NCBI GenBank assembly: GCA_002421475.1
Contig: DIJW01000180.1
Span: 1-15,500, forward strand
Reading direction: 5' to 3'
Source: Thiomicrospira sp. UBA5634
GTDB lineage: Bacteria; Pseudomonadota; Gammaproteobacteria; Thiomicrospirales; Thiomicrospiraceae
Length of the DNA: 15,500 bases
Below, in pieces: positions 233 to 13,406 of the stretch. The first letter of the stretch is position 1. Every line of letters begins with the position of its first letter. The position numbers and the translations under genes are program-made. The notes beneath the pieces are model-generated. The model was given only the letters and a program-made list of their open reading frames with translations, made no database searches and was not told the origin of the DNA.

Positions 233-1153
233 ATGTTTTTGTATGTTAGTCACCCAATGTGTAAAAAACATGACAATGGTTGGGGACATCCTGAAAATGC
301 GGAGCGCTACAGCCGAGTGGAGGACGCCTTGGTCAGCGCACGATTGCTTGATTATGTGCTGACCAAAGAGGCACGTCAAGCCAATGATGAAGATATCCTA
401 CGCGTTCATACGCCACACTTCTTAAAAACACTTAAAGCGGCGATTCCGCAACAGGGTTTAATCACCCTTGATGAAGACACCGCGTTATCACCCGATAGTT
501 TAGACGCGGCGCGATATGGCAGTGGCGCTGTGTTAGATGCAATTGATTCAATTATGGCCGGCCAAGCACAACGTGCATTTTGTAATATTCGCCCACCGGG
601 ACATCATGCCGAAGTGCAAAAACCCATGGGTTTTTGCTTATTGAATCATGTCGCGATCGGCGCGGCTTACGCCCTTGAACACTATGGTTTAGAACGTGTG
701 GCAATTGTGGATATTGATGTGCATCATGGTAATGGCACCGAAAGTTATGCACGCGTCGAACCCCGTGTCACACTGATTTCAAACTTTGAAAGCGGTATTT
801 ATCCGTTTACCGATCCTCATTCAGATCTGCCTAATCAACTCAAATTGCCCATGCCCGCCCATACTAGTGGCGCACAATGGCTGGAAGCTTGGAATCATTT
901 AGGCTGGCCATTTTTACAGGCCGCCCGCCCGCAATTAATTATTGTATCTGCCGGTTTCGATGGTCATCAAATGGATCCTTTAGCACATTGGAACCTACAT
1001 GAACGCGACTACCAGGCCTGGACAGAACAACTCATAAGGCAAGCTAATCAGTTATGCCAAGGGCGGATTGTATCGGTGCTTGAAGGCGGCTACGATTTGA
1101 CTGCTTTAGGATTGAGTGTGGTCGCCCATGTTAAGGCGCTGGCGGAGCTTTAA
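233..1153 (+). CDS. Histone deacetylase family protein (class II-like, AcuC/acetylpolyamine amidohydrolase superfamily)
   Basis: A complete 306-residue zinc-dependent deacylase of the arginase/deacetylase fold. The family hydrolyses acetyl-lysine or acetylpolyamine amides in the cytoplasm. Visible motifs: HPENAERY near residue 19; RPPGHHAE (120-127) with the catalytic His pair H124-H125; GFCLLNHVAIGAAYA (133-147); DIDVHHGNGTE (160-170), giving zinc ligands D162 and H164; SAGFDGHQMDPLA (239-251) with the third ligand D243; and LEGGYD (283-288) with the transition-state Tyr287. All catalytic residues are present and the length is normal, so the enzyme should be active. GGAGGGG just upstream supports the ATG. 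The gene faces a CoA-ligase/GNAT-type gene, a pairing reminiscent of the Bacillus acuABC and protein-acetylation systems, so lysine deacetylation of a metabolic enzyme is a reasonable but unproven role. Acetylpolyamine deacetylase is the alternative. Confidence 0.93.
   Translation: MFLYVSHPMCKKHDNGWGHPENAERYSRVEDALVSARLLDYVLTKEARQANDEDILRVHTPHFLKTLKAAIPQQGLITLDEDTALSPDSLDAARYGSGAVLDAIDSIMAGQAQRAFCNIRPPGHHAEVQKPMGFCLLNHVAIGAAYALEHYGLERVAIVDIDVHHGNGTESYARVEPRVTLISNFESGIYPFTDPHSDLPNQLKLPMPAHTSGAQWLEAWNHLGWPFLQAARPQLIIVSAGFDGHQMDPLAHWNLHERDYQAWTEQLIRQANQLCQGRIVSVLEGGYDLTALGLSVVAHVKALAEL
1011..1020. repeat. ACCAGGCCTG repeat, copy 1 (inside the deacetylase gene)
   Basis: The first of eight copies of a palindrome-centred word in the window, here ACCAGGCCTGGA. 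It is read in frame as part of Tyr-Gln-Ala-Trp. See the iterated-palindrome finding. Confidence 0.85.
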
Positions 1154-1257
1154 CGCCACTCAAACAATAAGCAATATAGGTAATATGCCCGCATAAACAA
1201 ATTTTGGGATTAACTAGGCTTCACATTAAGCCCCCTGATCGCCATAATAAGTCCCCT

Positions 1258-2925
1258 ATGCATAAACAACTCGCCCAACATTTATTCGAACACAGTCATC
1301 AACTTATCCTCACGTTGGATAAGGATGGTTGCATTTGTAGTATCAACCCGTTTGCTTGTGAACTACTTGGGCAAACGGAGCAATCTTTGTTAGGGCAAAA
1401 CTGGTTTGAGCGTTATGTTCCGGTGGATGAACAAAACCATCTGCAACGCCATTTACATGAAGTATTAACGTATCAGTTATCGCACGCCACCTTCCGCCAT
1501 CATGTTGTCGATCACCAAGGTTTATTGCACGCTTTTGATTGGCACCATGGTTACGTTAATCAACCTGACGGTTGTGCCGCCGTTGCTTGTTTAGGTCAAG
1601 ATGTGACCGAACTTGAAGACACCCAAAAACGCCTTACTTATCTTAAAGATTACGACAAACTCACCCAGTTACCAAAACTTGATTTATTTAAAGAGCTATT
1701 TGAGCACGCGTTGCACATGGCAAAACGCCAACAACAAAAACTGGCTCTGTTTTTTATCGACATTGATAACCTAAAAATCATCAATGATCGTTATGGTCAT
1801 GCTGTGGGGGATGAGTTAATTCAACAGGCCGCGCAACGATTATCCGTTTCGTTAGAGGATAATGACTCCTTAGCCAGCTTTGGCGGGGATGAATTTGTTT
1901 TGCTGGTTGAGGATGCCAATACCCAACAAATTTTTGAACACTGTGAACGCATTGCCGAGTTGTTTAAACCTCCTTTCAAGACCCAAGCAGGCGAAATTTC
2001 GACATCATGCAGCATGGGAATCAGTTTGTATCCGACGGATGGATTGGATAGTCAAACGCTGCTAAAAAATGCCGACATCGCTAAAAATCGTGCAAAAGCA
2101 GACGGTAAAAGCCAATTTCATTTTTACCAAAACGGCATGGATGAAGAAATCAGCCAATTACATGTAATGGAAATTGAGCTGAAAAAAGCATTACTAAACC
2201 ATGAGTTTCAATTGTTTTTCCAACCGCAAATTGACAGCAAAAGTAAGCAACTGATCGCCTGTGAAGCACTGATTCGCTGGAACAATCCACTGTTAGGTTC
2301 CGTTTCACCGGCCGAATTTATTCCGTTCGCTGAAAAAGCCAATTTGATTGTGCCCATTGGGGACTGGGTTTTATCCGAATCCATTGCCCAACACCAGGCC
2401 TGGAAACAACAAGGCAACCTTATTCCGATCAGTATTAATGTTTCGCCTAAACAACTCGAAAACCCGGTGTTTGTAGAACGATTATTAAACTTGCCGCAGG
2501 AATATCCCCAGGTCGATTTAACCATGATTGAACTTGAAATCACTGAAACCAGTATGATGAAAAACCCGCTGCAAACCTATGCCTTGCTCGAACGCATCTC
2601 GCAGTTAAGAATTCGGATTGCAATTGATGATTTTGGTACCGGTTATTCGTCATTTGCTGCATTAAAACGCGGCGCATTCCATAAACTAAAAATTGACCGT
2701 TCGTTTATAACGCAAATGGAAAAAGGATCGGAAGATGCGGTGATTGTGACGGCGATCATTCGAATGGCAGAAACGCTGGGATTAAAAATCATAGCGGAAG
2801 GGGTTGAGCATGAAGCGCAAAGCGATTTACTTGCCAGTTTAGGTTGCCGCCATATTCAAGGTTTTTTGTATGGTCGCCCGATGCCAGCCGATCAAGTCAT
2901 TAATCACATGCAACAACTCGCTTAG
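1258..2925 (+). CDS. PAS-GGDEF-EAL cyclic-di-GMP signalling protein
   Basis: From the ATG at 1258 this is 555 residues. A TTG at 1204 would add 18 basic, low-complexity residues. Neither start has a clear Shine-Dalgarno, and the ATG was chosen because it leads straight into the PAS domain. Order of domains: PAS (about 10-120), GGDEF (about 130-290) with an intact GGDEF at 209-213, and EAL (about 305-553). The EAL part keeps the usual phosphodiesterase residues: EALIRW (336-341), SINVSPKQL, IELEITET, IDDFGTGYSS (456-465), KLKIDRSF, AEGVE (513-517) and QGFLYGRPM. It should therefore hydrolyse c-di-GMP. The inhibitory RxxD site five residues before GGDEF is EDND, so product inhibition of the cyclase is doubtful. 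There is no membrane segment, and the PAS domain suggests a cytoplasmic sensor of redox state or a small ligand. The net activity cannot be told from sequence. Confidence 0.93.
   Translation: MHKQLAQHLFEHSHQLILTLDKDGCICSINPFACELLGQTEQSLLGQNWFERYVPVDEQNHLQRHLHEVLTYQLSHATFRHHVVDHQGLLHAFDWHHGYVNQPDGCAAVACLGQDVTELEDTQKRLTYLKDYDKLTQLPKLDLFKELFEHALHMAKRQQQKLALFFIDIDNLKIINDRYGHAVGDELIQQAAQRLSVSLEDNDSLASFGGDEFVLLVEDANTQQIFEHCERIAELFKPPFKTQAGEISTSCSMGISLYPTDGLDSQTLLKNADIAKNRAKADGKSQFHFYQNGMDEEISQLHVMEIELKKALLNHEFQLFFQPQIDSKSKQLIACEALIRWNNPLLGSVSPAEFIPFAEKANLIVPIGDWVLSESIAQHQAWKQQGNLIPISINVSPKQLENPVFVERLLNLPQEYPQVDLTMIELEITETSMMKNPLQTYALLERISQLRIRIAIDDFGTGYSSFAALKRGAFHKLKIDRSFITQMEKGSEDAVIVTAIIRMAETLGLKIIAEGVEHEAQSDLLASLGCRHIQGFLYGRPMPADQVINHMQQLA
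2393..2402. repeat. ACCAGGCCTG repeat, copy 2 (inside the GGDEF-EAL gene)
   Basis: An exact ACCAGGCCTGGA copy, read in frame as His-Gln-Ala-Trp in a surface helix before the SINVSPKQL motif. It has the same orientation on the plus strand as copy 1. Confidence 0.85.
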
Positions 2926-2934
2926 ACGCTATAA

Positions 2935-2967
2935 ACAACCAGGCCTGGTGATACCAGGCCTGGTTGT
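2935..2967. terminator. Perfect 15-bp hairpin between convergent genes, built from two copies of the AGGCCT palindrome
   Basis: Left arm ACAACCAGGCCTGGT (2935-2949), loop GAT (2950-2952), right arm ACCAGGCCTGGTTGT (2953-2967). The arms are exact reverse complements. The hairpin lies 9 bp after the stop of the GGDEF-EAL gene and 32 bp beyond the stop of the convergent metallo-beta-lactamase-fold gene, where a bidirectional terminator is expected. There is no U-run on the plus strand (TAAAG follows) and only a short TTTAT on the minus strand, so termination efficiency is uncertain. Each arm itself contains the palindrome ACCAGGCCTGGT that recurs elsewhere in the window. Confidence 0.65.
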
Positions 2968-2999
2968 AAAGTGATCACAGCTACACTGCATTAAACTCG

Positions 3000-4097
3000 C
3001 TAAAAGTCACCACCGGTTAACTCTTTATAAACATGCACCGCGTTATTACGATGCGTTTGTTCATACACGGGACGATCTTTATAGGCAGATTGATCAATCT
3101 CCTCAATCTGTTGCTGACGCCCACCGGCCGCCACCACTTTTTCAACCGCTTTATGCAAAAACTCCAAATAACCTAATGTCTGGCGCTCAGCGGTTTTCAT
3201 ATCGGTCGGTGTACCATGGCCGGGAATAACCTTAGTATCTGCCGGAATGGTTTTAACAAACTTACGGTAAGAGTCCATCCACCCTAATGTATAGGTATAA
3301 GGGAAAAATGCCAACATGCGTTCATTAAACGCGAGATCTCCGGCGAAAATTAACTTACGTGACGGGATATACAAAGCAGCTGAACCCGGCGTATGGCCGG
3401 CACCAAAATTGATCAGTTCCACTGTTTCGCCACCACCTACATCTATTTTCATGGATTCATTAAAGGTGATAAAACGATCGGTTACATTACGCGCGGTTCC
3501 GGTAAGTTCATGGCTAACCGCACGACTCCACTCGTCTTTAATGTAGTCAAATGCATCATTAAAATCCGCATTGGCGGTCGCATTCGAATACAGGTTACGC
3601 ACACCGACATCGACCCAATAACTCGCGCCCAGATAAGCATGTCCTTGACTGTTTTCAACCGCTAACCATTTAACCGGCTTATTAGTCATACGTTTAATGC
3701 GTTGATGCAAGGTATACGCAATAGCCGGATTCGCACCGGCATTAAACACAAACACACCGTCTTCAAAAATAGCAAAACCGGGGTTATTGTTTAAACCAAA
3801 GTTAGATGGGTTATGCCAAATTTGACTCCCCACCATCACATACACGCCATCTGTTACTTTTGTTAAAGGCGGCAAGGGCAACTCGGCGCCGAGATAACCG
3901 TATTGTTTTTCTAATTTTTTGATTTCGTTTATATAGGTGGTTACCCCTTGCTGGACTGAGGTTTCACCCGCTTGCAATAATTGCTGTTCATATTGCTCAA
4001 AACCTGACACAAATTGATCTGCTTTAACCACATTTGTTATTGAAGCCGCTGCAACAATCGCGCTCCATAACAGGCTGTGGGTTAGTGTTTTTTTCAT
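3000..4097 (-). CDS. Exported metallo-beta-lactamase-fold protein with a degenerate HxHxDH motif
   Basis: 365 residues. The start at 4097 follows AAAGGGGAT at a good distance. Residues 1-26 form a Sec signal peptide ending VVKA, so the mature protein is periplasmic. The fold is recognisable: the first strands near VTDGVYVMVG (81-90), GAGHTPGSAALY (232-243) with the metal ligand H235, IFAGDLAF (250-257) with the bridging D254, and VIPGHGTP (290-297) with H294. The defining HxHxDH motif is replaced by QGHAYL (151-156), keeping only the middle His. The first-site ligands and the Asp of the second site are therefore gone. Compared with MBL-fold hydrolases of the SoxH/glyoxalase type it should bind at most one metal, or be a non-catalytic binding protein. 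The gene has its own upstream gap with an inverted repeat and is not tightly linked to the lipoprotein operon. The substrate is unknown. Confidence 0.85.
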   Translation of the reverse strand: MKKTLTHSLLWSAIVAAASITNVVKADQFVSGFEQYEQQLLQAGETSVQQGVTTYINEIKKLEKQYGYLGAELPLPPLTKVTDGVYVMVGSQIWHNPSNFGLNNNPGFAIFEDGVFVFNAGANPAIAYTLHQRIKRMTNKPVKWLAVENSQGHAYLGASYWVDVGVRNLYSNATANADFNDAFDYIKDEWSRAVSHELTGTARNVTDRFITFNESMKIDVGGGETVELINFGAGHTPGSAALYIPSRKLIFAGDLAFNERMLAFFPYTYTLGWMDSYRKFVKTIPADTKVIPGHGTPTDMKTAERQTLGYLEFLHKAVEKVVAAGGRQQQIEEIDQSAYKDRPVYEQTHRNNAVHVYKELTGGDF

Positions 4098-4117
4098 GAT
4101 GTATCCCCTTTATTTAT

Positions 4118-4149
4118 GTTGAGTTAATTTGCTTCGATCAACACTCAAC
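4118..4149. promoter_or_regulatory. Inverted repeat upstream of the MBL-fold gene (candidate operator)
   Basis: GTTGAGT at 4118-4124 and its exact reverse complement ACTCAAC at 4143-4149, separated by 18 bp, lie 20-50 bp upstream of the start codon at 4097. Inside is GATCAAC, which partly repeats the arm. This is a plausible protein-binding site or part of the leader, but with 7-bp arms it may be coincidence. No strong -35/-10 pair could be fixed. Confidence 0.25.
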
Positions 4150-4249
4150 CATGATATTAGCACTTTATAAACTCTTGTCTTATCATGAACTTTTATTGGG
4201 GGGTCGATAAACTTTATTACACTTTTTGCGCGTCATAACTCGTACCGAT

Positions 4250-6160
4250 TTAATACACCAAGTTCACTGAAGCATAAAAACCATGCCACACATCCCAGCG
4301 CCCAAACTCGAGAGCGATCTCATCAGCATCCAACTTAGTTTTAGATTCATCTGATTGCCCAGAGGTCATATAACCTGCTTTTAGCCGATAACCAGCCGTC
4401 AACGCATAACCTGCCCCACGCCATTTTTTAATTTTCTGCTGATGAATATAACCCCAGTCAATTTTGCCATCTAACGCAATTGCGCCTGAACCGACCAATT
4501 TTTTACCTTCATCACGTAGTTCACGTTTCAAATCATTGGATACCGCTACATCAACCCAACCGATGCCAATTAACCAATCGGTATAAAAACGGCTAATATT
4601 GTTTTCATAACGCCGCACATAGTCGAGCTCATCGTAGCCATATACTAATGCCAATTTAGTTAAGCGCGTTTTAGGATCATAACCCACATAAGTAACTTGT
4701 TTAGTGCTGTCGGAAAAACCTAACATGCCCGGCATTTGATAAGACTCATACACCAGGCCTGCATAACGACCCCGCTCCCCCATCACCAGGCCTGCATATT
4801 GTTGTAACTTAGTTTCAAACTCCACCGAGCCGATTGGATTTAACAAGGTTGCGCCACTGGTTGCATTGGCTGACAACTGCGCAATACCGCCAACATTACC
4901 CTGCTCCATTTTGAGACGTAACGAGGATTGTGGACTAAAAAAACCATTAAAATCGACCACCGCATTTAAAAAGTTAGATGCCTCTTTAATTTGCCCACCC
5001 TGCTTTTCCGCTTCATTGCGCGTGTAAGTCAATGCCAATTGAGTGCTGTCATATTTTCCCTGGATCCAATAACTTTTATATAACGAATCGCCGATGTCGT
5101 ACTTGGTTTTGGCATAGGTTGTTTTATCTTTTGTAACATCCGCATTAGCCTCCCAAGCTAAGGATGCCACGCCGGCACCTAACATCAACTCCAGTGTTTT
5201 CTCCTGCTCAAAGCCATTAATATGTAGCGGTTGATTGGATGCTAATAACGGTGCGTCATAACGGCGCGGAATAATAAAATGTACATGACTATCTGAACTG
5301 GCATTTTGCGCGGATACCACTAAATTATCGTCACGTTCATAAACACTCGGATCAAAGCCGACATTTGCCAGTTCGGAATTAAATAACCACCCGGACTCGG
5401 TGCGTTGGTTAGGCATATCAACTCGTCCAAACACCAGTCCTTTGTTATAACTGTTAACATATTTATAAACTGAGTAATACAGCATTTCACGCGCAGGATA
5501 AACACTTAACACGCCATTACGATCCCCCCGCCGCGCTAATTGCTCACCGGTATCTAGCCAGGACTTCATATCACTGACATGAATAAAGCCACCTTGATCA
5601 ATACCAATCATCGCCAATTTACCTTGCGGGTCTGAACCAAATTTGGCATAACGCAAAGGTGAGGTGACCGCTAACACAACGCGGCCATCAACGACCAGGC
5701 CTGCCTTGGTGATCGTCAAAACTTTACCGTCGGCGTTCACAATTCTATCTAAACTCCCACTGGCATGCGCTTGTTCAATTGTCTGAGTACGGCCTTTATC
5801 ATTGGTGACATAATAATTGGTAATCGTTTTATTACCGGATTTGTAACTCACTGAATAATACAAATAAGCCTGATTTTTATAACGCCCACTCGCCAAACGC
5901 GTGACACTTGCCTCACGGCGGTAGCTTTTTAATATTTCGCCTTCACCGTTTTTAATCACCGGCCAACATTTTCCATTATTGTTTGGACAATGTCGGCTAT
6001 TAAAGACCAAGGGGGCTTCTAACTCATTTAAATACTGTTGATAACTTTTATCCCCAATTTGCGGAGCAACAAACGCATACTCACCTTCTTTCGCCGGTAT
6101 TTCTGCCCAACTTACCGCTGAAAAAACCAAAGCAAAAACAAAACCTATTATCTGTTTCAT
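4250..6160 (-). CDS. Secreted protein with probable N-terminal propeller-like region and C-terminal outer-membrane beta-barrel
   Basis: 636 residues. I do not recognise a named family. Residues 1-19 are a Sec signal peptide (hydrophobic core IIGFVFALVFSAV, cleavage after SWA). Residues about 20-310 are short beta-strands and turns with repeated hydrophobic-polar patterns, as in beta-propellers. They include the motif HCPNNNGKC, whose two cysteines could form a disulphide in the periplasm. From about residue 320 the sequence becomes alternating amphipathic strands rich in Tyr and Gly (YWIQGKYD, YAGYALTAGYRLKAGY-like stretches), and the protein ends in the strand FYASVNLVY with an aromatic last residue, the classic BAM recognition feature. 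A C-terminal barrel is therefore likely. The start at 6160 has GGAG about 11 nt upstream. An intrinsic terminator lies only 26 bp before the start codon, so expression probably depends on read-through from the lipoprotein operon. Three copies of the AGGCCT repeat are inside the gene. Confidence 0.75.
   Translation of the reverse strand: MKQIIGFVFALVFSAVSWAEIPAKEGEYAFVAPQIGDKSYQQYLNELEAPLVFNSRHCPNNNGKCWPVIKNGEGEILKSYRREASVTRLASGRYKNQAYLYYSVSYKSGNKTITNYYVTNDKGRTQTIEQAHASGSLDRIVNADGKVLTITKAGLVVDGRVVLAVTSPLRYAKFGSDPQGKLAMIGIDQGGFIHVSDMKSWLDTGEQLARRGDRNGVLSVYPAREMLYYSVYKYVNSYNKGLVFGRVDMPNQRTESGWLFNSELANVGFDPSVYERDDNLVVSAQNASSDSHVHFIIPRRYDAPLLASNQPLHINGFEQEKTLELMLGAGVASLAWEANADVTKDKTTYAKTKYDIGDSLYKSYWIQGKYDSTQLALTYTRNEAEKQGGQIKEASNFLNAVVDFNGFFSPQSSLRLKMEQGNVGGIAQLSANATSGATLLNPIGSVEFETKLQQYAGLVMGERGRYAGLVYESYQMPGMLGFSDSTKQVTYVGYDPKTRLTKLALVYGYDELDYVRRYENNISRFYTDWLIGIGWVDVAVSNDLKRELRDEGKKLVGSGAIALDGKIDWGYIHQQKIKKWRGAGYALTAGYRLKAGYMTSGQSDESKTKLDADEIALEFGRWDVWHGFYASVNLVY
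4751..4798. repeat. Two 15-bp direct repeats carrying ACCAGGCCTG, copies 5 and 6
   Basis: CACCAGGCCTGCATA occurs at 4751-4765 and again at 4784-4798, exactly 33 bp apart. In the barrel gene on the minus strand both copies are in the same frame and encode Tyr-Ala-Gly-Leu-Val, 11 residues apart in neighbouring barrel strands. The repeat extends 2-3 bases beyond the 10-mer on the right. Confidence 0.85.
5694..5703. repeat. ACCAGGCCTG repeat, copy 7 (inside the barrel gene)
   Basis: The third copy within this one gene. It is read on the minus strand as Lys-Ala-Gly-Leu-Val, the same AGLV reading as the pair at 4751-4798, although this part of the protein is the propeller-like region rather than the barrel. 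Confidence 0.85.
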
Positions 6161-6186
6161 AAAATATGACCACTCCCAAAATTGCT

Positions 6187-6217
6187 AAAAAAAAGCCATC
6201 CTAATCAGATGGCTTTT
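6187..6217 (-). terminator. Intrinsic terminator after the 335-aa lipoprotein gene
   Basis: On the minus strand the stem AAAAGCCATC / GATGGCTTTT (6217-6208 and 6200-6191, 10 bp) with a 7-nt loop is followed by a run of eight U (6194-6187). It begins 18 bp after the stop at 6236 and ends 26 bp before the next start at 6160. The symmetrical A and T flanks could also stop transcription from the other strand. Confidence 0.88.
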
Positions 6218-6235
6218 AGGGTATCTCGGTTAAAG

Positions 6236-7243
6236 TTATTGACCGCTAATAAAATCAATAATGCTTTTATCACCCATTAGACGACTATAAGGCGTCGTAT
6301 CTTGCACCGCAGCTTGTTCACTTTGTGGCGAAACCCCGCGGGTTTTCACGTTACGTTTTGATACGGTTCGATTTTGGGCATCCGTTACCGTCATAGAGGT
6401 ATCGCGATTCACCATTTTTAGACTGGCCACTCGTGCATCGGTGGTTCTAACCGACACAGGTGTTGCGTTGGTCGTAAGCTGAATTTTGATATTCCCTGTC
6501 TTTGCCACTTTATAGTTTTCAGCGGTTAATTGTTGCTCAATCAATTTAGCTAATGCTTGCGAGTTCGCATCCGCAGCGACAACAAACACCGCGTTTTGTT
6601 TTTGCTCACTCATGTGCTGATAAATCGCTTGGGTTAAACCTGTCACTTTAGGTTCACTAAACTGAGGCTGTAGCACTTGCAGGATGCTCAAAATAGATGT
6701 CAAATCTGCTGATTGGTTCAAAACGGCACGGCTATTTTTTAACTGTTCAAACAAACTGGTGTTTTTATAGAGTTTAAAATCATTATCCAACTGACCATGT
6801 GCCGTATTTAATTTATTACGATAATGCTGCACCAACGCCGGGCGATTCACTCTTACCAAAACCTGAACCTGTGCACCGACAGTTTGCTGATCAAAAACCT
6901 CTACGCCGATAAAATCAATATTTTGTGTCTGGGTGAGTACTTGATTGCGGTAAGTTTGATCAATCGTTTCATCGCCGTCTTTCATCGTAACCGATAAATT
7001 CGCCTCTGACTGTGACTTAACCGACACAGAAATGCGCGCGGCAATTTTCGCCAACGCATCATTTTGTGCGGTAACTTGGCTATCACCAAAACCATCCGCA
7101 TAAAAATAACTGGCGTTATCTCCAGGTACTATCATTTCACTTTGTGCTTTGGTTACCGAAGCGGATGTTTGTTTACTCGGTGCTGCCACACATCCCAGCA
7201 TTAACGTTGCAACAGCAAGCCCAAAAAGGGTTTTTTTCAACAT
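6236..7243 (-). CDS. LPP20-family outer-membrane lipoprotein (335 aa)
   Basis: The start at 7243 follows AAGAGGTAG. Residues 1-17 form a lipoprotein signal with lipobox LMLGC, giving acylated C18. Residue +2 is Val, so Lol sorting to the outer membrane is predicted. Residues about 48-150 resemble the LPP20 domain: YADGFGDSQVTAQNDALAKI followed by AARISVSVKSQSEAN and the later strand VGAQVQVLVRVNR. Residues about 215-285 look like a second alpha/beta region that starts AVFVVAADANSQALAKLIEQ. The C-terminus (TTPYSRLMGDKSIIDFISGQ) is unlike standard short LPP20 proteins, which are usually under about 200 residues. It is the last gene before the second terminator in a run of lipoprotein genes. LPP20-like proteins include FlgP and other envelope factors. 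No flagellar gene is visible here, so I do not assign that role. Confidence 0.8.
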   Translation of the reverse strand: MLKKTLFGLAVATLMLGCVAAPSKQTSASVTKAQSEMIVPGDNASYFYADGFGDSQVTAQNDALAKIAARISVSVKSQSEANLSVTMKDGDETIDQTYRNQVLTQTQNIDFIGVEVFDQQTVGAQVQVLVRVNRPALVQHYRNKLNTAHGQLDNDFKLYKNTSLFEQLKNSRAVLNQSADLTSILSILQVLQPQFSEPKVTGLTQAIYQHMSEQKQNAVFVVAADANSQALAKLIEQQLTAENYKVAKTGNIKIQLTTNATPVSVRTTDARVASLKMVNRDTSMTVTDAQNRTVSKRNVKTRGVSPQSEQAAVQDTTPYSRLMGDKSIIDFISGQ

Positions 7244-7275
7244 GGTTCTACCTCTTGTTTGTTATATGAGCTGAG

Positions 7276-8526
7276 TTATTTTTTTGCTTGGAGTTTTTCC
7301 ATTTGCTTTTTCTGACTGGCATCCGCATCTAACACAATCTGCACCACCGAGCGGTACTTACCTGCTAATGCATTTTGCTTGTATGCGTAATACGTCCCCA
7401 TGCCGATCGAAGGCAATAAATAAACCATATTTTCAACTAAACGAGCGACCCGCTGCTCCATTAAATGACGTTGTTGAACCGGAACAAAAAAAGTCGACTG
7501 CGCCAAAGCGGCAAGTTCTTTATCGAAATTTTGCAAACTCCCTCGTGCCATTAACGACGAGGTAGCAAGGGTATAAAGTACCGCTGCATCACCGGCTCCG
7601 CTTTTTACTTCATCCAAGGCCAATTTTAGATTTTGCGCCAATAACACATTTTCTGCCGACAAGTTAATATCACTTTTCAGTGCTTCAACCGCGTTATCTA
7701 AGACTTGGAAGTTAATTTTTTGTTTTTGATCTGCCTCTTCTTCAGCGGCTTTTATTTGCGTGTCCAACACAGCAATTTGTTCGTTGAACTGCGTCACCTC
7801 ACTTGCTGACAAAGGACTTAACTCACCCTTATAACCTTTGGCCTTCGTCGCTTTATCATCCTCCAAACGTTTGGCGATATCGGCTTTATCTTTTTTTAGC
7901 ATGGCTACTTGATCAAATGCATCCTGCATTTCGCGATTGGTGGTATCTAAATCCTTTTGATAACTGATCGGCATAATCGACACGATAGCGGCATAGATAT
8001 TTGGATATTGCGTTGCTTGGACTGCTTCGATGCGTTGCGGTTTTTTATCTTGCGCATCGACAAACTCTAAAAACTGATCCAATTTCGATGAATACTTCAA
8101 CATATTTGGCCAGTTTTCAGGATTATCACCATACATCACATTAATTTTTTTATAGGCGACAAAGGTTAATGGCGAAATGCCCGGCGCAATGTAACCACCC
8201 AATTGCTGCCGCTGAAATGGATCGGAATAATGACGCGTTGCAAACCACGGATCATTAGCCAAGGCTTTGTTGATCACTTTACTTTGTTGCTCGGTCATCT
8301 CTGCAGCCATTTGCGCCGGCCAAGTCGCATCGGCCGAAATCGGCATATTATTAATAATATGATGATTAATGCGTAACATACCGGTACCAACAGCTACACG
8401 GTTCGCCTGCGCTTCAACCGTTGGAGTTTCCAACGCCACGATTAAGGTCTCACCTAACGACGCGCAGCCTGACAAGGTTGCCAAACCAACTATGAAGGTT
8501 GATATAGCGAATAAACGTTTAAGCAT
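7276..8526 (-). CDS. Uncharacterised outer-membrane lipoprotein with coiled coil (416 aa)
   Basis: The start at 8526 follows AAAGGAT. The signal ends in the lipobox TLSGC (C21), with Ala at +2, so outer-membrane sorting is predicted. I do not recognise the family. The protein is mostly helical. Residues about 195-270 are rich in Lys, Glu, Asp and Gln with heptad-like spacing (MLKKDKADIAKRLEDDKATK, AVLDTQIKAAEEEADQKQK) and should form a coiled coil. A hydrophobic stretch follows near residues 365-385 (ENMVYLLPSIGMGTYYAYK), and the C-terminus is basic and helical (KKQMEKLQAKK). It lies between two other lipoprotein genes with gaps of about 33 bp, so it is co-transcribed. A rod-like periplasmic spacer or scaffold between outer membrane and wall is a reasonable structural guess, nothing more. 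Confidence 0.8.
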   Translation of the reverse strand: MLKRLFAISTFIVGLATLSGCASLGETLIVALETPTVEAQANRVAVGTGMLRINHHIINNMPISADATWPAQMAAEMTEQQSKVINKALANDPWFATRHYSDPFQRQQLGGYIAPGISPLTFVAYKKINVMYGDNPENWPNMLKYSSKLDQFLEFVDAQDKKPQRIEAVQATQYPNIYAAIVSIMPISYQKDLDTTNREMQDAFDQVAMLKKDKADIAKRLEDDKATKAKGYKGELSPLSASEVTQFNEQIAVLDTQIKAAEEEADQKQKINFQVLDNAVEALKSDINLSAENVLLAQNLKLALDEVKSGAGDAAVLYTLATSSLMARGSLQNFDKELAALAQSTFFVPVQQRHLMEQRVARLVENMVYLLPSIGMGTYYAYKQNALAGKYRSVVQIVLDADASQKKQMEKLQAKK

Positions 8527-8560
8527 CTAACTATCCTTTAATTATCTTTTTATCTAATTC

Positions 8561-9493
8561 TTATTGAATAAAAAACTGCTGATTTAACTCTTGATTAAGC
8601 TGTTGATTTTTCAACTGTTGACTTTGGGTTAATACTAACAAGCGATAAAAGTTGTCAAAACGTGCTTTTGCCGCAGCAACAATTTCATTTTTATTGCCAC
8701 CCAATTTAAACGCCTCATCGTAAGCGTCTTTAGCTTTCGCAGTCGTTTTTAGGTTTTCGGTACGACTGCCCAAGGCTTCAAATAACACCGCTAAATCATA
8801 ATAAAAGTTCATATCTCTTTTACCTTTGAACTTCAACATATCTTCAATTGCAGATTCAAAGTTGCCTCTTTCAGCAAAGCCGATGACATGCGATAACTCA
8901 GACGGCAAGGGTAAAAACTCACGTAACTGATTGGTTCGCGTAGGTGAAATATCACTGACGAATTTTTTAACGACCGTCTGACTGGCACGAGACAGAATGT
9001 CTTGTTTACTCGGTAAACGGTTAGGGTCAGAGGAAAAACGAATTTCACTGGCATCATAAATTTTGCTTAAAACCGGTGTTGAACCCTTCGATAAGGTAAA
9101 GGTAATTTTCATTGACGCTCTACGCTCTTTCGCCGCTTCGATATATTGATAATCCAATACCTCCATATCGAGCACGACGCTGGCCATATCGTAAATTGGA
9201 TGCAAGGTAATAAAACTGGTTTCGGTAATTTGAGCACGAATCTGATTGACTAAATTGCGCATCAATAAATCCGCTTCAACTTTCGCCGGAGGCGTAGCCG
9301 CGAACTGCAAATCAGGGTTAATCGCAAAGGTTAAATACACTCCTTCAGCCGTTTCACCACCACTTTTTAACTCTTCAATTTTCTGAATATCTGCCGGTGG
9401 CGTATACGAAGGCACCACAATTTTGGTGTTTTGAGCACAACCGGCTAACAACATAACCAGTGACGCACTTGCAAATAGATTTCTTACTAACAT
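8561..9493 (-). CDS. Uncharacterised outer-membrane lipoprotein, LpoB/CsgG-like region (310 aa)
   Basis: The start at 9493 follows AAAAAGGAA. The lipobox LLAGC places the lipid on C19, with Ala at +2, predicting outer-membrane sorting. Residues about 45-190 alternate strands and helices in the manner of the CsgG/LpoB/LptE-like small alpha/beta lipoproteins: VEADLLMRNLVNQIRAQI, then VVLDMEVLDYQYIEAAKER, then ASMKITFTLSKG. Residues about 205-285 are helical pairs resembling one or two TPR units (VIGFAERGNFESAIEDMLKF, FYYDLAVLFEALG, AKDAYDEAFKLGG). The tail is strikingly Gln/Asn-rich (TQSQQLKNQQLNQELNQQ). A role in activating a peptidoglycan enzyme, by analogy with LpoB and given the neighbouring transglycosylase gene, is inference. 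The family call needs a profile search. Confidence 0.75.
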   Translation of the reverse strand: MLVRNLFASASLVMLLAGCAQNTKIVVPSYTPPADIQKIEELKSGGETAEGVYLTFAINPDLQFAATPPAKVEADLLMRNLVNQIRAQITETSFITLHPIYDMASVVLDMEVLDYQYIEAAKERRASMKITFTLSKGSTPVLSKIYDASEIRFSSDPNRLPSKQDILSRASQTVVKKFVSDISPTRTNQLREFLPLPSELSHVIGFAERGNFESAIEDMLKFKGKRDMNFYYDLAVLFEALGSRTENLKTTAKAKDAYDEAFKLGGNKNEIVAAAKARFDNFYRLLVLTQSQQLKNQQLNQELNQQFFIQ

Positions 9494-9541
9494 ACTGAAT
9501 TCCTTTTTTATAAAACTATGATGACTGAATCTTTGACGTTA

Positions 9542-10702
9542 TTAACTGAGATTTTGGTAACTCTGTTTCGCCGCCAATACTTTACGCAGATAGTTTTTTG
9601 TTTCGTCATAGGGCAGATTATTAAGTAATGTGCCATGCACTCGTGTTGACGACATCTGGTTTATGCGATCATACATCGGCGTTAACTTGGTACTACCGGT
9701 AAAAGCACGTGCAACATTGCCCGGCCCGGTGTTATAGGCCGCAATCGCACAATATAGGCGAGATTGCGGGTCTTTCACTTCGTTAAAATAACGGTTGTGC
9801 AAAATATGTAAATACGCCGAGCCCATTTGCAGATTATTACGTGGGGTATACAAGTAACTGGGAGAAACTAATCTGGGTTCACCATAAATTAACTTGCTGG
9901 CATCCAACCCAGCCGAACGCGGCACGATTTGCATTAAACCAAACGCAGGTACATGCGATTTTGCTAACGGATTAAATGCACTTTCACACTTCGCAATCGC
10001 CATCACCAACGAAGGTTCAATCTGCCAGCGCTTGGCTTGTTGATTGACGTCCAGCAAATAACGCTGCTCTGCTTGATTTAATTGTTTAGCACTCAAAGGC
10101 ATGACATAACGGGTTAGATTTTGTCCTTGCGATGTTGTCACAATTTGTGCTCTCGGCAAGGTTTGATTAAGTTGTACCGGGTTGTATTTGGGAGATATAG
10201 TTGGCGATTTTTCAGCAACAAGGCTACCTGCTAAGCGATTTAATTTAATATTTTCTTCAGCAGTGAAGTCATTCAACGCATGATCCATCGGATCACGATC
10301 GACTAACTTAAACAAGTCAGCCCGATTCAGTTGTCGAATCATTTCGTTAATTTCTGCACGCTGCTGACCACTCGGCGGCGTAACGCTTTCAATTCTCACT
10401 TCACCTTTTTCATAATCAATCACTAACTTATGCGCAAGAGTCTCATCATAGGTAACCCATTTAGTCGGCGCTGAAACTTCAGGATCTCGCCAACGAGTGC
10501 TTAAGGTTTTTTTGTATTTTACAAACTCGGTTTCATACAGTTGTTTATAAGCTGCGAATGCTTGATTTAAGGCCGTCTCATAATCTGAAAAAGCTTGAAG
10601 CTCTTGCTGTTTGTAGACCTCAAACTCATCCGTTTGAGCCAAAGCACTCAGTGGCCAAAAAGGTAAGCTGGCGCCTAATGTTAAAAACTGGCGTCTTTGC
10701 AT
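9542..10702 (-). CDS. MltC-like membrane-independent lytic murein transglycosylase with Tat signal
   Basis: From the ATG at 10702 the protein has 386 residues. A GTG at 10717 would add five, but GGAG nine bases before the ATG decides for the ATG. The N-terminus MQRRQFLTLGASLPFWPLSA has a twin-arginine RRxFL motif and an ALA cleavage site without a lipobox Cys, so it should be a soluble periplasmic protein. E. coli MltC is instead a lipoprotein. Residues about 60-115 match the MltC-type N-terminal domain (KYKKTLSTRWRDP, KWVTYDETLAHKLVIDYEKG). The SLT domain spans about 220-345: AIAKCESAFNP with catalytic E240, GLMQIVPRSAG, and AIAAYNTGPGNVARAF with the AYN motif (322-324). It would cleave the MurNAc-GlcNAc bond to form 1,6-anhydro ends. 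It sits amid lipoprotein genes, which suggests local wall opening for an envelope assembly (inference). Confidence 0.9.
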   Translation of the reverse strand: MQRRQFLTLGASLPFWPLSALAQTDEFEVYKQQELQAFSDYETALNQAFAAYKQLYETEFVKYKKTLSTRWRDPEVSAPTKWVTYDETLAHKLVIDYEKGEVRIESVTPPSGQQRAEINEMIRQLNRADLFKLVDRDPMDHALNDFTAEENIKLNRLAGSLVAEKSPTISPKYNPVQLNQTLPRAQIVTTSQGQNLTRYVMPLSAKQLNQAEQRYLLDVNQQAKRWQIEPSLVMAIAKCESAFNPLAKSHVPAFGLMQIVPRSAGLDASKLIYGEPRLVSPSYLYTPRNNLQMGSAYLHILHNRYFNEVKDPQSRLYCAIAAYNTGPGNVARAFTGSTKLTPMYDRINQMSSTRVHGTLLNNLPYDETKNYLRKVLAAKQSYQNLS

Positions 10703-10720
10703 AAAGATTTTCTCCACGGA

Positions 10721-11203
10721 TTATTGCAGCGGCACAACCCACAAATATAAACGCTGAGTAACCGCGTCATACCACTCAGCCTTAACCTGGGCGCGGACTT
10801 TTGCAGTGTCATCAGCGGAAGTAATTTCGGCGTAATCAATGTGCGACTCCCGCACACCAACTTGATCGTTATAACTTTGAGTCGATTTGGTCACTTTGGA
10901 ATGTAATGAAATTTCGGTTCCAAACTGTGCTTTTGCTAACTCCACTAAACTTTGGTCCAAAACCAGTTCACGTGTTTTTTCACGCCCCTGAATATGTAAC
11001 GGGCTAGACCGAACAATTCCTTCATTTGGTTGAAATCCGGCCTGCGTCCAAGCCGGTCGACCATTCGCATCCGTCACCGTTTTTGTAGCGGAGTTTGTCA
11101 TACAACCGTTCAGCAACCCTACCAAAGAAACAATGAACAACATTAATGCAAACTTAACCCTACGCCAACTTAATTGATTAAGCGGCACAACATCTAAACT
11201 CAT
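10721..11203 (-). CDS. Small LPP20-like outer-membrane lipoprotein (160 aa)
   Basis: The start at 11203 is supported by AAAGGAAG nine bases upstream. The signal is long, with a basic WRRVKFAL stretch before the hydrophobic core and a lipobox LLNGC at C34. Asn at -2 is atypical but the Gly-Cys is normal. Residue +2 is Met, so outer-membrane sorting is predicted. The mature part (about 127 residues) has an LPP20/LpoB-like order: GRPAWTQAG, then a helix REKTRELVLDQSLVELAKAQ, the strand TEISLHSKVTKSTQSYND, and a C-terminal strand AVTQRLYLWVVPLQ. This is close to the FlgP/LPP20 small-lipoprotein pattern of a helix followed by beta-hairpins, but I cannot be sure of the family. Its stop lies 18 bp before the start of the transglycosylase gene, so the two are translated from one message. 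Confidence 0.75.
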   Translation of the reverse strand: MSLDVVPLNQLSWRRVKFALMLFIVSLVGLLNGCMTNSATKTVTDANGRPAWTQAGFQPNEGIVRSSPLHIQGREKTRELVLDQSLVELAKAQFGTEISLHSKVTKSTQSYNDQVGVRESHIDYAEITSADDTAKVRAQVKAEWYDAVTQRLYLWVVPLQ

Positions 11204-11270
11204 CCGATAGCTTCCTTTAAAACAAGACTTAAAATCGAGTTACAACCGTTATCTAAAAATAACCGATGAA

Positions 11271-11441
11271 TTATTTCGTAACGCGATCCAATTCTTTGAA
11301 AGACTTGTCCGATTCCGCTTTTTGCGCGTTGGCTTTTTCTTGCTGCAGTTTAATCCGGTCCGCTTCGCTCATCATTGTGCTCGCACAAGCACCCAGACTG
11401 AACAAAACCGCTACTAACATCAACCATTTAAATTTCATCAT
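11271..11441 (-). CDS. Very small helical lipoprotein (56 aa)
   Basis: The ATG at 11441 is favoured because GGTGA lies five bases upstream. An ATG at 11453 without a ribosome site would add four residues, and the next ATG at 11438 would remove one. The signal MMKFKWLMLVAVLFSLGAC ends in the lipobox SLGAC, with Ala at +2. The mature part is only about 38 residues, almost entirely charged helix (SEADRIKLQQEKANAQKAES) and ends in Lys. In length, helicity and terminal Lys it recalls Braun's lipoprotein, but the sequence is not Lpp and the heptad pattern is weak. It follows directly after the first internal terminator and precedes the 160-aa lipoprotein gene by about 67 bp. Function unknown. Confidence 0.7.
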   Translation of the reverse strand: MMKFKWLMLVAVLFSLGACASTMMSEADRIKLQQEKANAQKAESDKSFKELDRVTK

Positions 11442-11476
11442 TTCGTTCACCATTGTGGATTACATTTAATAGATAT

Positions 11477-11504
11477 AAAAAAGCCCCGAAAACTCGGGGC
11501 TTTT
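11477..11504 (-). terminator. Intrinsic terminator between the first and second lipoprotein genes
   Basis: The stem AAAAGCCCCGA / TCGGGGCTTTT (11479-11489 and 11494-11504) is 11 bp with a 4-nt loop. On the minus strand it ends in six U. It begins 10 bp after the stop of the 197-aa lipoprotein gene and ends about 35 bp before the start of the 56-aa lipoprotein gene, leaving little space for a new promoter. It probably reduces, rather than blocks, transcription of the downstream genes. Confidence 0.9.
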
Positions 11505-11514
11505 AACCAGCAAC

Positions 11515-12108
11515 TTATTGCATAGGTTGTTTTGCGATTTCTGCTGACATTTCGTCAAACGATTTTTGTGCTTGGAACTGCTGCCATAATGCTTTGTCAT
11601 TTTTCATGCTGGTGCTAACTGACTGCTGAATGATTTTTTCCGCATTCGCTTTATCAATCCCCATCAATACAAAATAACGCCCATCCGGTGCTTGTAACGA
11701 TTTATAGATTTTTGAACCATTTAACTCTTGGTTTGCAACGGTACGTAATGTTGAACTTGCCGCGGCATCAACTGTTTCTTCATTACCAACACCGGTTGTA
11801 CCTAAATAACTTTTCACCATTTTTTGTGCCGTTACCTGAACTTGTTCCGCTAAACGTCCACGTGCATCAGCCGCTGCACGATCACGCATAAATGAAATAC
11901 CGGCTTTTGATGGCTCAGAAACACCCACTGCTGAAATTTCAACGCCTGGAACCGGCTCATCACAAATCCAACCCGGTGCTGCCGTAGTTGTGCCTGGGAA
12001 CATACAATCTGGAACAGGTGCAGCCGCTTCTTTTTTAACTTCTTTACCGCCACACGCCACTAACAACCCTGTCATTGACAGGACTAATGCTAACTTAACA
12101 ACCTTCAT
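11515..12108 (-). CDS. LPP20-family lipoprotein (197 aa), first gene of the envelope operon
   Basis: The ATG at 12108 is fixed by AAGGAGAG six bases upstream. An in-frame ATG at 12135 would put the ribosome site inside the gene. The signal MKVVKLALVLSMTGLLVAC gives acylated C19, with Gly at +2, predicting outer-membrane sorting. A Lys/Glu/Ala/Pro-rich linker follows, then a Cys pair (PVPDCMFPG at C35, GWICDEP at C49) that may form a disulphide. Residues about 56-165 are a typical LPP20 domain: ISAVGVSEPSKAG, the helix FMRDRAAADARGRLAEQVQV with its Ala-rich and Arg-rich pattern, then KIYKSLQAPDGRYFVLMGID. The C-terminus is helical (KALWQQFQAQKSFDEMSAEI). It lies closest to the strong promoter and is followed by a terminator, so it should be the most abundant protein of the set. 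Relatives in this broad family act in envelope and flagellar structures. Confidence 0.85.
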   Translation of the reverse strand: MKVVKLALVLSMTGLLVACGGKEVKKEAAAPVPDCMFPGTTTAAPGWICDEPVPGVEISAVGVSEPSKAGISFMRDRAAADARGRLAEQVQVTAQKMVKSYLGTTGVGNEETVDAAASSTLRTVANQELNGSKIYKSLQAPDGRYFVLMGIDKANAEKIIQQSVSTSMKNDKALWQQFQAQKSFDEMSAEIAKQPMQ

Positions 12109-12170
12109 ATATCTCTCCTTAACAGTTAATCTCAAAACACCAGCCGCCTCTATAGGCCGATTACCGTTCG

Positions 12171-12198
12171 ATTATAGTCGTTTTATACGCCATGTAAA
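12171..12198 (-). promoter_or_regulatory. Near-consensus sigma-70 promoter of the lipoprotein operon
   Basis: On the minus strand TTTACA (12198-12193) is separated by 16 bp from a perfect TATAAT (12176-12171). The expected transcription start near 12165 leaves a leader of about 55 nt before the ATG at 12108. This is the best promoter seen in the window. Confidence 0.75.
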
Positions 12199-12392
12199 CC
12201 AGTTAAAAAAACCTAAGTTTTTTTATTTCACTGCGCATCCAAGCGCCATTTAGTAGATAATTCTACAACATCAAACGCTTAGCTAAACTGAGCGAAATCA
12301 AGAAAAATAACCCAGTGAACTAAAACTTGTTTCTCCAACAAAACAGTGCTGAGTTATAGTTATTTAATCTCGCTTAATTACAGGTTAAAACA
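12199..12392. other. Divergent intergenic region between the lipoprotein operon and the RND genes
   Basis: Besides the A/T tract, this AT-rich stretch holds two small dyads: GTAGA-TAAT-TCTAC (12253-12266), and CGCTTAG-CTAAA-CTGAGCG (12276-12294, one mismatch). Both are weak. For the rightward genes TATAGT at about 12355-12360 could be a -10 box, but no good -35 lies at the right distance. AGGT eight bases before the ATG at 12393 is a modest ribosome site. No open reading frame with a credible start and no RNA gene was found. Confidence 0.4.
12205..12224. promoter_or_regulatory. A7/T7 tract upstream of the lipoprotein promoter (UP-element-like)
   Basis: Seven A followed by CCTAAG and seven T, forming AAAAAAAC-CTAA-GTTTTTTT, lies 7-26 bp upstream of the -35 box. 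Phased A/T tracts at this position can bind the RNA polymerase alpha subunit or bend DNA and raise promoter strength. It could also fold as a weak A-U hairpin. Confidence 0.4.
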
Positions 12393-13406
12393 ATGAAACC
12401 TCTTGCCTTAGTTAGTTTTTTTCTACTGTGCTTTAATGCCTATGCAACCGACACGTGGCGTTCGCAAGTGCAAACACAAATGCTGGATAAAATCGCTATT
12501 CAGCTTACGCAAAACTTTGCCGCCGAAGTCATCAGCCCGAATCAAACCATTTTATCCAGTGAACTGAATGCCAAAATTGAGCACATTGCAGTAAGGCCGG
12601 GAGATGCTGTAAAGTCCGGCCAATTATTAATTGCACTTGATTGTCGTGACACGCAATCACAGCTGGCTAAACTCGAAGCGCAATATGCGCAAACCCAAGC
12701 CAGCTTAAATTTAGCTCAATTGCAATTAACACGTTTAACGGACTTGATTGAACGCCAACTAACCTCGACTAATACGTTTGACGAAGCACAAACTCAAGTG
12801 ACGCAACTTAATGCCGCATTACAAGCCATAACAATCGACAAAAAACTGGCATCACGCCAAATTGAACGTTGCCGTTTAACCGCGCCGTTTGATGGCGCAA
12901 TCTTGCAGCAGCGCGTCGGGGTCGGCCAATGGGTCGCGGTCGGTCAATCGTTAATTGAACTCGTACAAACCACTCATGCCGAAATCGAAGTACAAGTTCC
13001 TCATAGCTGGTTAAATCAATCAAACCAGGCCTGGTTGGCGAGTTTAACGGCACAAGGCAAGCAGTATCATGATCTGGTTTTGTTACGCCAAGCGGCAAGC
13101 CTTGATCCACGCAGCCGCAGCATTAAACTTTGGTTTGCGGCTCCCCCCGACTTACCGATTGGCCTTGCTGGCGAACTTAGTTTGACTCAAGCACAACGTT
13201 ATTTACCCGCGAACGTGATTGTTAAACGCAATAACCAACTCGGGGTATTTGTCGTCAAAGCCGATCAATTACTGTTTAACGTGTTACCACAAGCGGAAGA
13301 AGGACGCCCTTATCCGATACCGCCTGACTGGAGCGCTGAGATGGAAATTGTCACCAGTGGACAAAATCGTTTAAATCACAGCACTAGCCACTCAGCCCCA
13401 AAGTGA
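12393..13406 (+). CDS. RND efflux periplasmic adaptor (membrane fusion protein)
   Basis: 337 residues. The signal peptide MKPLALVSFFLLCFNAYA shows export. There is no lipobox, so the protein is not lipid-anchored. Order of elements: barrel-sandwich half near residues 55-85 (IEHIAVRPGDAVKSGQLLIA); alpha-helical hairpin about 86-155 (ALDCRDTQSQLAKLEAQYAQ onward); the second sandwich half LTAPFDGAILQQRVGVGQWV (162-181); then the beta-barrel and membrane-proximal regions. It would link the inner-membrane RND pump to a TolC-type outer channel, which is not in the window. The stop lies 7 bp before the permease start, so the two form an operon. One copy of the ACCAGGCCTGGT repeat encodes Asn-Gln-Ala-Trp-Leu after the hairpin. 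At 337 residues it is on the short side of the family. The substrate cannot be deduced. Confidence 0.93.
   Translation: MKPLALVSFFLLCFNAYATDTWRSQVQTQMLDKIAIQLTQNFAAEVISPNQTILSSELNAKIEHIAVRPGDAVKSGQLLIALDCRDTQSQLAKLEAQYAQTQASLNLAQLQLTRLTDLIERQLTSTNTFDEAQTQVTQLNAALQAITIDKKLASRQIERCRLTAPFDGAILQQRVGVGQWVAVGQSLIELVQTTHAEIEVQVPHSWLNQSNQAWLASLTAQGKQYHDLVLLRQAASLDPRSRSIKLWFAAPPDLPIGLAGELSLTQAQRYLPANVIVKRNNQLGVFVVKADQLLFNVLPQAEEGRPYPIPPDWSAEMEIVTSGQNRLNHSTSHSAPK
13024..13035. repeat. ACCAGGCCTGGT repeat, copy 8 (inside the RND adaptor gene)
   Basis: A perfect 12-bp palindrome, extended to the 14-bp palindrome AACCAGGCCTGGTT (13023-13036). It has the same flanks as the intergenic hairpin arms and is more than 7 kb from the nearest other copy. 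Confidence 0.85.

What the first reader, a model, noticed from the sequence alone, without database searches (positions are those of the whole stretch)
1011..13035. Highly iterated palindromic word ACCAGGCCTG(GT) across the window
Seen directly: ACCAGGCCTG at 1011, 2393, 2938, 2953, 4752, 4785, 5694 and 13024 (eight copies). Four genes on both strands and one intergenic hairpin carry it. A given 10-mer on either strand is expected about 0.03 times in 15.5 kb (2 x 15,500 / 4^10). Three copies carry the full 12-bp palindrome ACCAGGCCTGGT, and two more have 11 of its 12 bases. Within genes it is read in frame either as Gln-Ala-Trp or as Ala-Gly-Leu-Val, so the DNA word, not one peptide, is conserved. 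Known parallels are HIP1 of cyanobacteria and the uptake sequences of Haemophilus and Neisseria. I do not recognise this word as described. It could be an uptake, methylation or chromosome-organising signal.
Basis: partly seen in the sequence, partly recalled or inferred. Interest (0 to 1): 0.85.

Follow-up and report, generated by a model that had tools for sequence, protein, structure and literature searches.

The report
Genome-wide repeated DNA word with dialects
A family of sulfur-oxidising bacteria peppers its genomes with hundreds of copies of one short DNA word whose spelling changes from species to species, most likely a tag by which cells recognise and take up DNA of their own kind.

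Summary
In detail: all eight copies are there. The window's draft genome holds 688 full ACCAGGCCTGGT palindromes and 1101 cores CAGGCCTG. In one order (Thiomicrospirales, recalled) 32 of 62 genomes hold 236-1173 cores, the other 30 hold 0-74. Among 365 sampled genomes of the class outside the order, none holds over 5 palindromes.

Six core-poor genomes carry other dense dialects: palindromic ACCGGCCGGT (1025 copies) or asymmetric words with an A-tract beside a GC-rich core, such as AAAATCTRCCAGGYTGGG. A-tracts also flank palindromic cores in some species. Sites are conserved at orthologous places although their flanks diverge more than average; where the dialect is absent, 0 of 33 are kept.

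Two methylase families do not track the word; 16 of 38 dense genomes lack both. ComEC and ComEA occur in 37 of 38, but the T4a pilus secretin is missing from 11.

Best reading: it works like a DNA uptake signal, an undescribed family with dialects, many palindromic. No receptor or transformation was shown; a chromosome-binding protein remains a live rival.

The parts
1011..1022 (.). copy, 11 of 12 bases (ACCAGGCCTGGA), in the 306-aa ORF 233-1153; read YQAWT
2393..2404 (.). copy, 11 of 12 bases (ACCAGGCCTGGA), in the 573-aa ORF 1204-2925; read HQAWK
2938..2949 (.). full 12-bp palindrome, intergenic, first arm of the hairpin
2953..2964 (.). full 12-bp palindrome, intergenic, second arm of the hairpin
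2935..2967 (.). hairpin made of two palindromes between convergent ORFs (15-bp stem, 3-nt loop); terminator-like, but no T-run follows
4752..4761 (.). 10-mer copy in the 636-aa ORF on the - strand; read AGLVY
4785..4794 (.). 10-mer copy in the same ORF; read AGLVM
5694..5703 (.). 10-mer copy in the same ORF; read KAGLVV
13024..13035 (.). full 12-bp palindrome in the 337-aa ORF 12393-13406; read NQAWL

Best explanation
ACCAGGCCTGGT is the local dialect of a genome-wide self-recognition word of the order. It most likely works like a DNA uptake signal of the USS/DUS kind. A DNA receptor of the competence machinery would bind the word, so that DNA carrying it is taken up and recombined preferentially; copies are then kept and spread by biased uptake and recombination. 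Changes of the receptor shift the word, giving species dialects: some palindromic (ACCAGGCCTGGT, ASCAGGCCTGST, ACCGGCCGGT), some asymmetric with an A-tract beside the core. Pairs between genes double as hairpins. Shown here: density, dialects, A-tract layout in some species, site conservation in divergent flanks, loss where the dialect is absent, presence of comEC and comEA. Inferred: uptake, the receptor, the drive. I do not file it as a member of DUS or USS, since one feature of their machinery was tested and not met.
For: Counts are bimodal: 32 of 62 genomes with 236-1173 cores, 30 with 0-74. Six more genomes carry other dense dialects; two of these, G014 and G023, were seen only in 40-kb samples. 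Asymmetric dialects lie on both strands (118/155, 116/149, 149/176). In samples they have AAA upstream in 12 of 13 (G007), 8 of 8 (G013), 5 of 5 (G008), 8 of 8 (G014) and 10 of 12 (G023) sites. AAA also flanks palindromic cores in G061 (16 of 26 half-flanks, background 0.16), G027, G006 and G048 (P unadjusted for 14 genomes). At orthologous places 59 of 101 directed comparisons between dense genomes keep the exact core, against 7.4% of 4253 composition-matched 8-mers; 0 of 33 keep it in genomes without a dense core (controls there 6.1%). Each genome pair once: 30 sites shared, 40 in one genome only, flank identity 0.615 against 0.717 at random places. For Neisseria DUS, PMC2397512 reports the same pairing of conserved word and permissive flank (passages). 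Intergenic density is 1.4-7.5 times genic density in 8 of 8 genomes (crude gene caller). Near methylase genes 22 cores against 36.2 expected. ComEC 37 of 38 dense against 19 of 24 others, ComEA 37 of 38 against 16 of 24.
Against: The ~700-aa T4a PilQ-type secretin is not found in 11 of 38 dense genomes (three of them only 82-86% complete) and is found in 18 of 24 others. In the two of these 11 whose MshL-type secretin locus I looked at, G006 resembles MSHA genes and G053 looks similar by eye; MSHA is, as I recall, not a known uptake pilus. ComEC and ComEA also occur in most motif-less genomes; completeness and kinship confound the association, and ComEA passes the curated cut-off in only 40 of 62 genomes. 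Known uptake words are not palindromes (PMC1939737, passage). Even spacing, reported for uptake words (same paper, passage), is significant in 2 of 8 sampled genomes (G006, G027) and in the G006 listing, but not in the G005 listing; full palindromes in G057 are if anything clumped. In the home genome no A-tract is enriched. No receptor was identified. My searches found no report of natural transformation in these genera.
Confidence: 0.55

Rival explanations
1. The word is the genome-wide binding site of a chromosome-organising, segregation or repair protein, a dimer where the site is palindromic; the dialects follow changes of that protein.
For: Palindromic core in 33 of 62 genomes; site conservation; T4a secretin not found in 11 of 38 dense genomes; intergenic enrichment.
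Against: The word turns asymmetric, with an A-tract on one side, in relatives. Hundreds to about a thousand sites would have to change together between species of one genus. Other species of the same genera have no dense word that I could find. Regional depletion (origin, terminus) was not tested.
Confidence: 0.22
2. HIP1-like: DNA methylation plus mismatch repair creates and keeps the palindrome.
For: HIP1 and alternate HIPs of cyanobacteria track methylases (PMC4390886, start of abstract, passages). The word contains two CCWGG sites and GGCC (sequence).
Against: PF00145 and Vsr are found in 0 of 9 genomes of the home genus. 16 of 38 dense genomes have neither PF00145 nor PF01555, and neither family is associated with density. 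The asymmetric dialects are about 18 bp and share no obvious methylase site with the others. Other methylase families were not searched, and the home genome is 84% complete.
Confidence: 0.1
3. A Chi-like recombination signal.
For: CCTGGTGG, the outer part of the extended home word, is one base from E. coli Chi GCTGGTGG. Of 118 forward sites in G007, 64 lie in the first 43% of the main contig, a weak skew (my count).
Against: Palindromes have no orientation. Asymmetric dialects occur in similar numbers on both strands genome-wide; replichores were not mapped. Chi of E. coli is found almost only on the leading strand (PMC8022716, passages).
Confidence: 0.05
4. A transcription terminator or other RNA element.
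For: The window pair folds at -29.2 kcal/mol between convergent ORFs. 7 of 10 close pairs in the home sample are intergenic.
Against: Only 10 neighbour pairs within 70 bp among 234 cores of the home sample. 81 of 147 full copies lie inside predicted genes. The lone palindrome at 13024 folds little better than shuffles (z -1.2).
Confidence: 0.05

Closest known systems
DNA uptake sequence (DUS) dialects of Neisseriaceae
   Same: Hundreds to thousands of copies; species dialects around a shared short core (PMC3630211, abstract and passages); word more conserved than its divergent flanks and absent from recently acquired genes (PMC2397512, abstract and passages); about a tenth as inverted repeats (PMC1939737, passage).
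   Different: Different sequence; palindromic core in 33 of 38 carriers; about 0.1-0.55 cores per kb; no receptor or transformation shown; T4a secretin not found in 11 of 38 dense genomes.
Uptake signal sequence (USS) of Pasteurellaceae
   Same: GC-rich core with A/T-rich stretches beside it and more than one dialect (PMC12616744, passages); paired copies in terminators of H. influenzae (PMC5217627, passage).
   Different: No GCGG core; A-tract within 3-10 bp of the core on one or both sides, and only in some species, rather than two stretches downstream; palindromic forms.
HIP1 and alternate HIPs of cyanobacteria
   Same: A genome-wide, highly iterated GC-rich palindrome, replaced by other words in some relatives and with palindromic extensions (PMC4390886, passages).
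   Different: The two methylase families searched do not track it; asymmetric dialects exist; the word is 12 bp with further dialect-specific flanks.

Membership tests
DNA uptake sequences (DUS/USS) | extreme genomic over-representation of one word | tested here: met
   49 seen against 0.012 expected in 166.6 kb; 32 of 62 genomes dense in the core
DNA uptake sequences (DUS/USS) | dialects among related species around a common layout | tested here: met
   the A-tract part of the layout is missing in G000, G057, G053 and G021
DNA uptake sequences (DUS/USS) | word more conserved than flanks, located in permissive places | tested here: met
   59 of 101 directed comparisons keep the core; flanks 0.615 against 0.717
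DNA uptake sequences (DUS/USS) | absent or rarer in recently acquired DNA | tested here: inconclusive
   22 against 36.2 expected in 29 loci of 19 genomes around methylase matches; acquisition itself not dated
DNA uptake sequences (DUS/USS) | competence genes comEC and comEA present | tested here: met
   37 of 38 dense genomes each; the one miss, G036, is 82% complete; also present in most motif-less genomes
DNA uptake sequences (DUS/USS) | type IVa pilus with PilQ secretin | tested here: not met
   not found in 11 of 38 dense genomes, the home genome (84% complete) among them
DNA uptake sequences (DUS/USS) | word raises DNA uptake or transformation; sequence-specific receptor | not testable with these tools
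   needs experiments; no receptor was sought by co-variation
HIP1-type iterated palindrome | highly iterated palindrome across the genome | tested here: met
HIP1-type iterated palindrome | matching DNA methyltransferase in carriers | tested here: not met
   16 of 38 dense genomes have neither PF00145 nor PF01555; other families not searched
Dcm/Vsr mutational bias | Dcm-type C5 methylase and Vsr nuclease in carriers | tested here: not met
   0 of 9 home-genus genomes match PF00145 or PF03852
Chi | asymmetric and polarised with replication | tested here: inconclusive
   palindromic core in 33 genomes; asymmetric dialects nearly balanced by strand genome-wide, but replichores not mapped

The most novel reading that the evidence does not exclude
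A third, independent family of DNA uptake signals, in chemolithoautotrophs. Its word switches between palindromic and asymmetric forms of a GC-rich core, often beside an A-tract, and it works without the classical T4a pilus in some species, for instance through an MSHA-type filament.
Probability: 0.45. Interest if true: 0.88.

Novelty: new variant of a known kind. Interest (0 to 1): 0.77.

Why it matters
Sequence-specific uptake words are best known from two families, Neisseriaceae and Pasteurellaceae (PMC12616744, passages). A third, in an order whose closely related species have, lack or respell the word, would be a natural experiment on how such words arise, switch and disappear, whether uptake bias alone keeps them, and which receptor residues read them.

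Tried and rejected
Dcm/Vsr origin, suggested by the two CCWGG sites in the word: rejected for the home genus, where neither family was found. PF00145 and PF01555 methylases in general: no association. T4a secretin as the discriminator: failed, and counted against uptake. ComEA as the discriminator: found in 53 of 62. Even spacing: significant for the core in 2 of 8 sampled genomes and in the first 64 listed sites of G006, but not in the first 64 of G005. Dialect replacement at the same place: 0 of 9 orthologous positions carried the other dialect. Viral carriers: one contig of the viral collection holds a close pair, followed only to its ORFs.

Motif-less genomes. 24 of 62 have no dense word that I know of. 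Fifteen were sampled (10-100 kb) for any dense word. Nothing convincing appeared in G003, G029, G041, G043, G051 and G052. G025 was swamped by a tandem repeat. G030 gave weak words only. G031 gave a 12-mer with 6 copies that weakened when copies within 300 bp were merged and was not looked into. Samples of G001, G004, G016, G019, G044 and G045 were small (10-30 kb). The other nine (G002, G017, G018, G020, G037-G040, G046) rest on pattern counts alone; the G017 piece had 1244 bases and was skipped. So a further dialect could be hidden among these 24.

Caveats on counts. One search counts both directions and includes a few overlapping pieces of the own genome (L001-L008); one search counts each genome pair once without them. 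One search uses rounded genome sizes, leaves out loci of genomes with other dialects, and includes a few weak methylase matches. One search returned 98 papers; I saw the 25 listed (titles, starts of abstracts): none of these held the full 12-mer, and all look unrelated by title.

Full report
Three are full palindromes and two have 11 of 12 bases. Genome-wide the draft holds 860 forward 10-mers and 688 palindromes with 0 in the backwards control, and 1101 cores CAGGCCTG with 5 in the control. Among single-base variants the outer two positions vary (A1G 6, C2G 6, A1T 3 beside 49 perfect copies in 166.6 kb), while each variant of the inner positions is seen 0 or 1 times. This fits a maintained word better than a decaying repeat.

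Where it occurs. A scan for two palindromes within 30 bp in named genomes returned 25 stretches: Thiomicrospira, Thiomicrorhabdus and Hydrogenovibrio records, plus one MAG called only Gammaproteobacteria. The order name Thiomicrospirales is recalled. Among 62 genomes of the order the core is dense in 32 (236-1173) and rare in 30 (0-74); the home genus is dense in 9 of 9. Of 369 genomes sampled from the class, 365 lie outside the order and hold at most 5 palindromes each; other dialects were not sought there.

Dialects. G027 has 1025 ACCGGCCGGT, the other 61 genomes at most 15. G007, G008 and G013 have 273, 265 and 325 copies of AAAATCTRCCAGGYTGGG, the others 0 or 1. G014 and G023 carry AAAATCGCCAGGGGTGG and AAACTCAACAGGCCGGGT in 40-kb samples, not counted genome-wide. 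G053 and G024 favour CAGGCCTGCT-type forms. AAA within 3-10 bp of the core is strongly enriched on one side in the five asymmetric dialect genomes. It is also enriched around palindromic cores in G061, G027, G006 and G048, marginally in G024 (P 0.06), and not in G000, G057, G053 or G021. G021, G006 and the home species have other preferred flanks, seen in genic and intergenic copies alike. I read these as one family, a GC-rich core often beside an A-tract, palindromic in most species; that they are homologous is inference.

How sites behave. Among dense genomes, 59 of 101 directed comparisons keep the exact core at the orthologous place, against 7.4% of 4253 composition-matched 8-mers. In genomes without a dense core 0 of 33 do, although their flank identity (0.68) is no lower than among dense genomes (0.63). 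Counting each genome pair once, 30 sites are shared and 40 are in one genome; flanks are 0.615 identical against 0.717 at random places of the same alignments. So the word is conserved in otherwise permissive places and is gone where the dialect is absent. Other dialects do not sit at the same positions (0 of 9). Intergenic density exceeds genic in 8 of 8 genomes examined with a crude gene caller. Around methylase matches 22 cores were found against 36.2 expected (P 0.008).

Which genes go with it. PF00145 occurs in 24 of 62 genomes (23 over the curated cut-off), none of the 9 of the home genus; Vsr in 5 of 62; PF01555 in 24 of 62 (21 over the cut-off). Counting every match, neither methylase family is associated with a dense word, and 16 of 38 dense genomes have neither. 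ComEC is found in 37 of 38 dense and 19 of 24 other genomes, ComEA in 37 of 38 and 16 of 24. Fisher tests give 0.03 and 0.001, but kinship and incomplete genomes confound them. The ~700-aa PilQ-type secretin is in 27 of 38 and 18 of 24; no match reached the curated cut-off, so this split rests on E-value and length. In G006 the secretin locus found resembles MSHA pilus genes (MshL 248.3 bits, cut-off 250.2). In G053 the ORFs around the secretin look like a similar set, by eye. In the home genome one of two secretin matches belongs to a Tad locus; the other was not looked at.

What it most likely is. Dialects, an A-tract beside a core, conserved words in divergent flanks, absence from part of the relatives, paired hairpins and competence genes match what is published for DUS and USS (passages of PMC3630211, PMC2397512, PMC12616744, PMC5217627, PMC1939737). 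Against it stand the palindromic form, the T4a secretin not found in 11 dense genomes, competence genes in motif-less genomes, and the lack of any transformation data. So I say that it works like an uptake signal and do not file it as DUS or USS. A chromosome-binding protein is the main rival. HIP1-type methylation is unlikely on present evidence but only two methylase families, plus Vsr, were searched.

Print status. Searches for the word, for iterated palindromes and for uptake words or competence in these genera gave no description in the listings I saw. The library is open-access only, so this is a limited statement. Three papers on over-represented words do not hold the name Thiomicrospira, nor does a survey of Chi motifs in Proteobacteria; a Hydrogenovibrio genome paper has 'palindromic' only in the name CRISPR.

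Noticed in passing
window 6236-12135: A run of lipoprotein-like ORFs on the - strand (signal peptides with a Cys box) with a lytic-transglycosylase-like ORF among them; read from the translations, not searched.
   Followed up: no
L051 (G030:C1:462291-462470): A Vsr match with one internal TAG stop near a C5 methylase gene, in a genome without the word.
   Followed up: no
L237 (viral contig IMGVR_UViG_3300012155_000236, 336-370): The only viral contig with two palindromes within 30 bp; its ORFs look GC-rich and unlike the order.
   Followed up: partly
L198-L199 (G025) and L205 (G044): A CTTGT-type tandem repeat in G025 and G-runs in G044 dominate the word counts there.
   Followed up: no
L178-L179 (G031): GGATAACGTCAC and overlapping 12-mers occur 6 times in 40 kb; a local repeat or another word, not looked into.
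   Followed up: no
G001-G004, G038, G040, G044-G046: The core CAGGCCTG is very rare (0-21 per genome) in these genomes without the dialect; whether it is avoided was not tested.
   Followed up: no
G007, forward sites: 64 of 118 forward asymmetric sites lie in the first 1.06 of 2.45 Mb, a weak orientation skew that might relate to replication.
   Followed up: no
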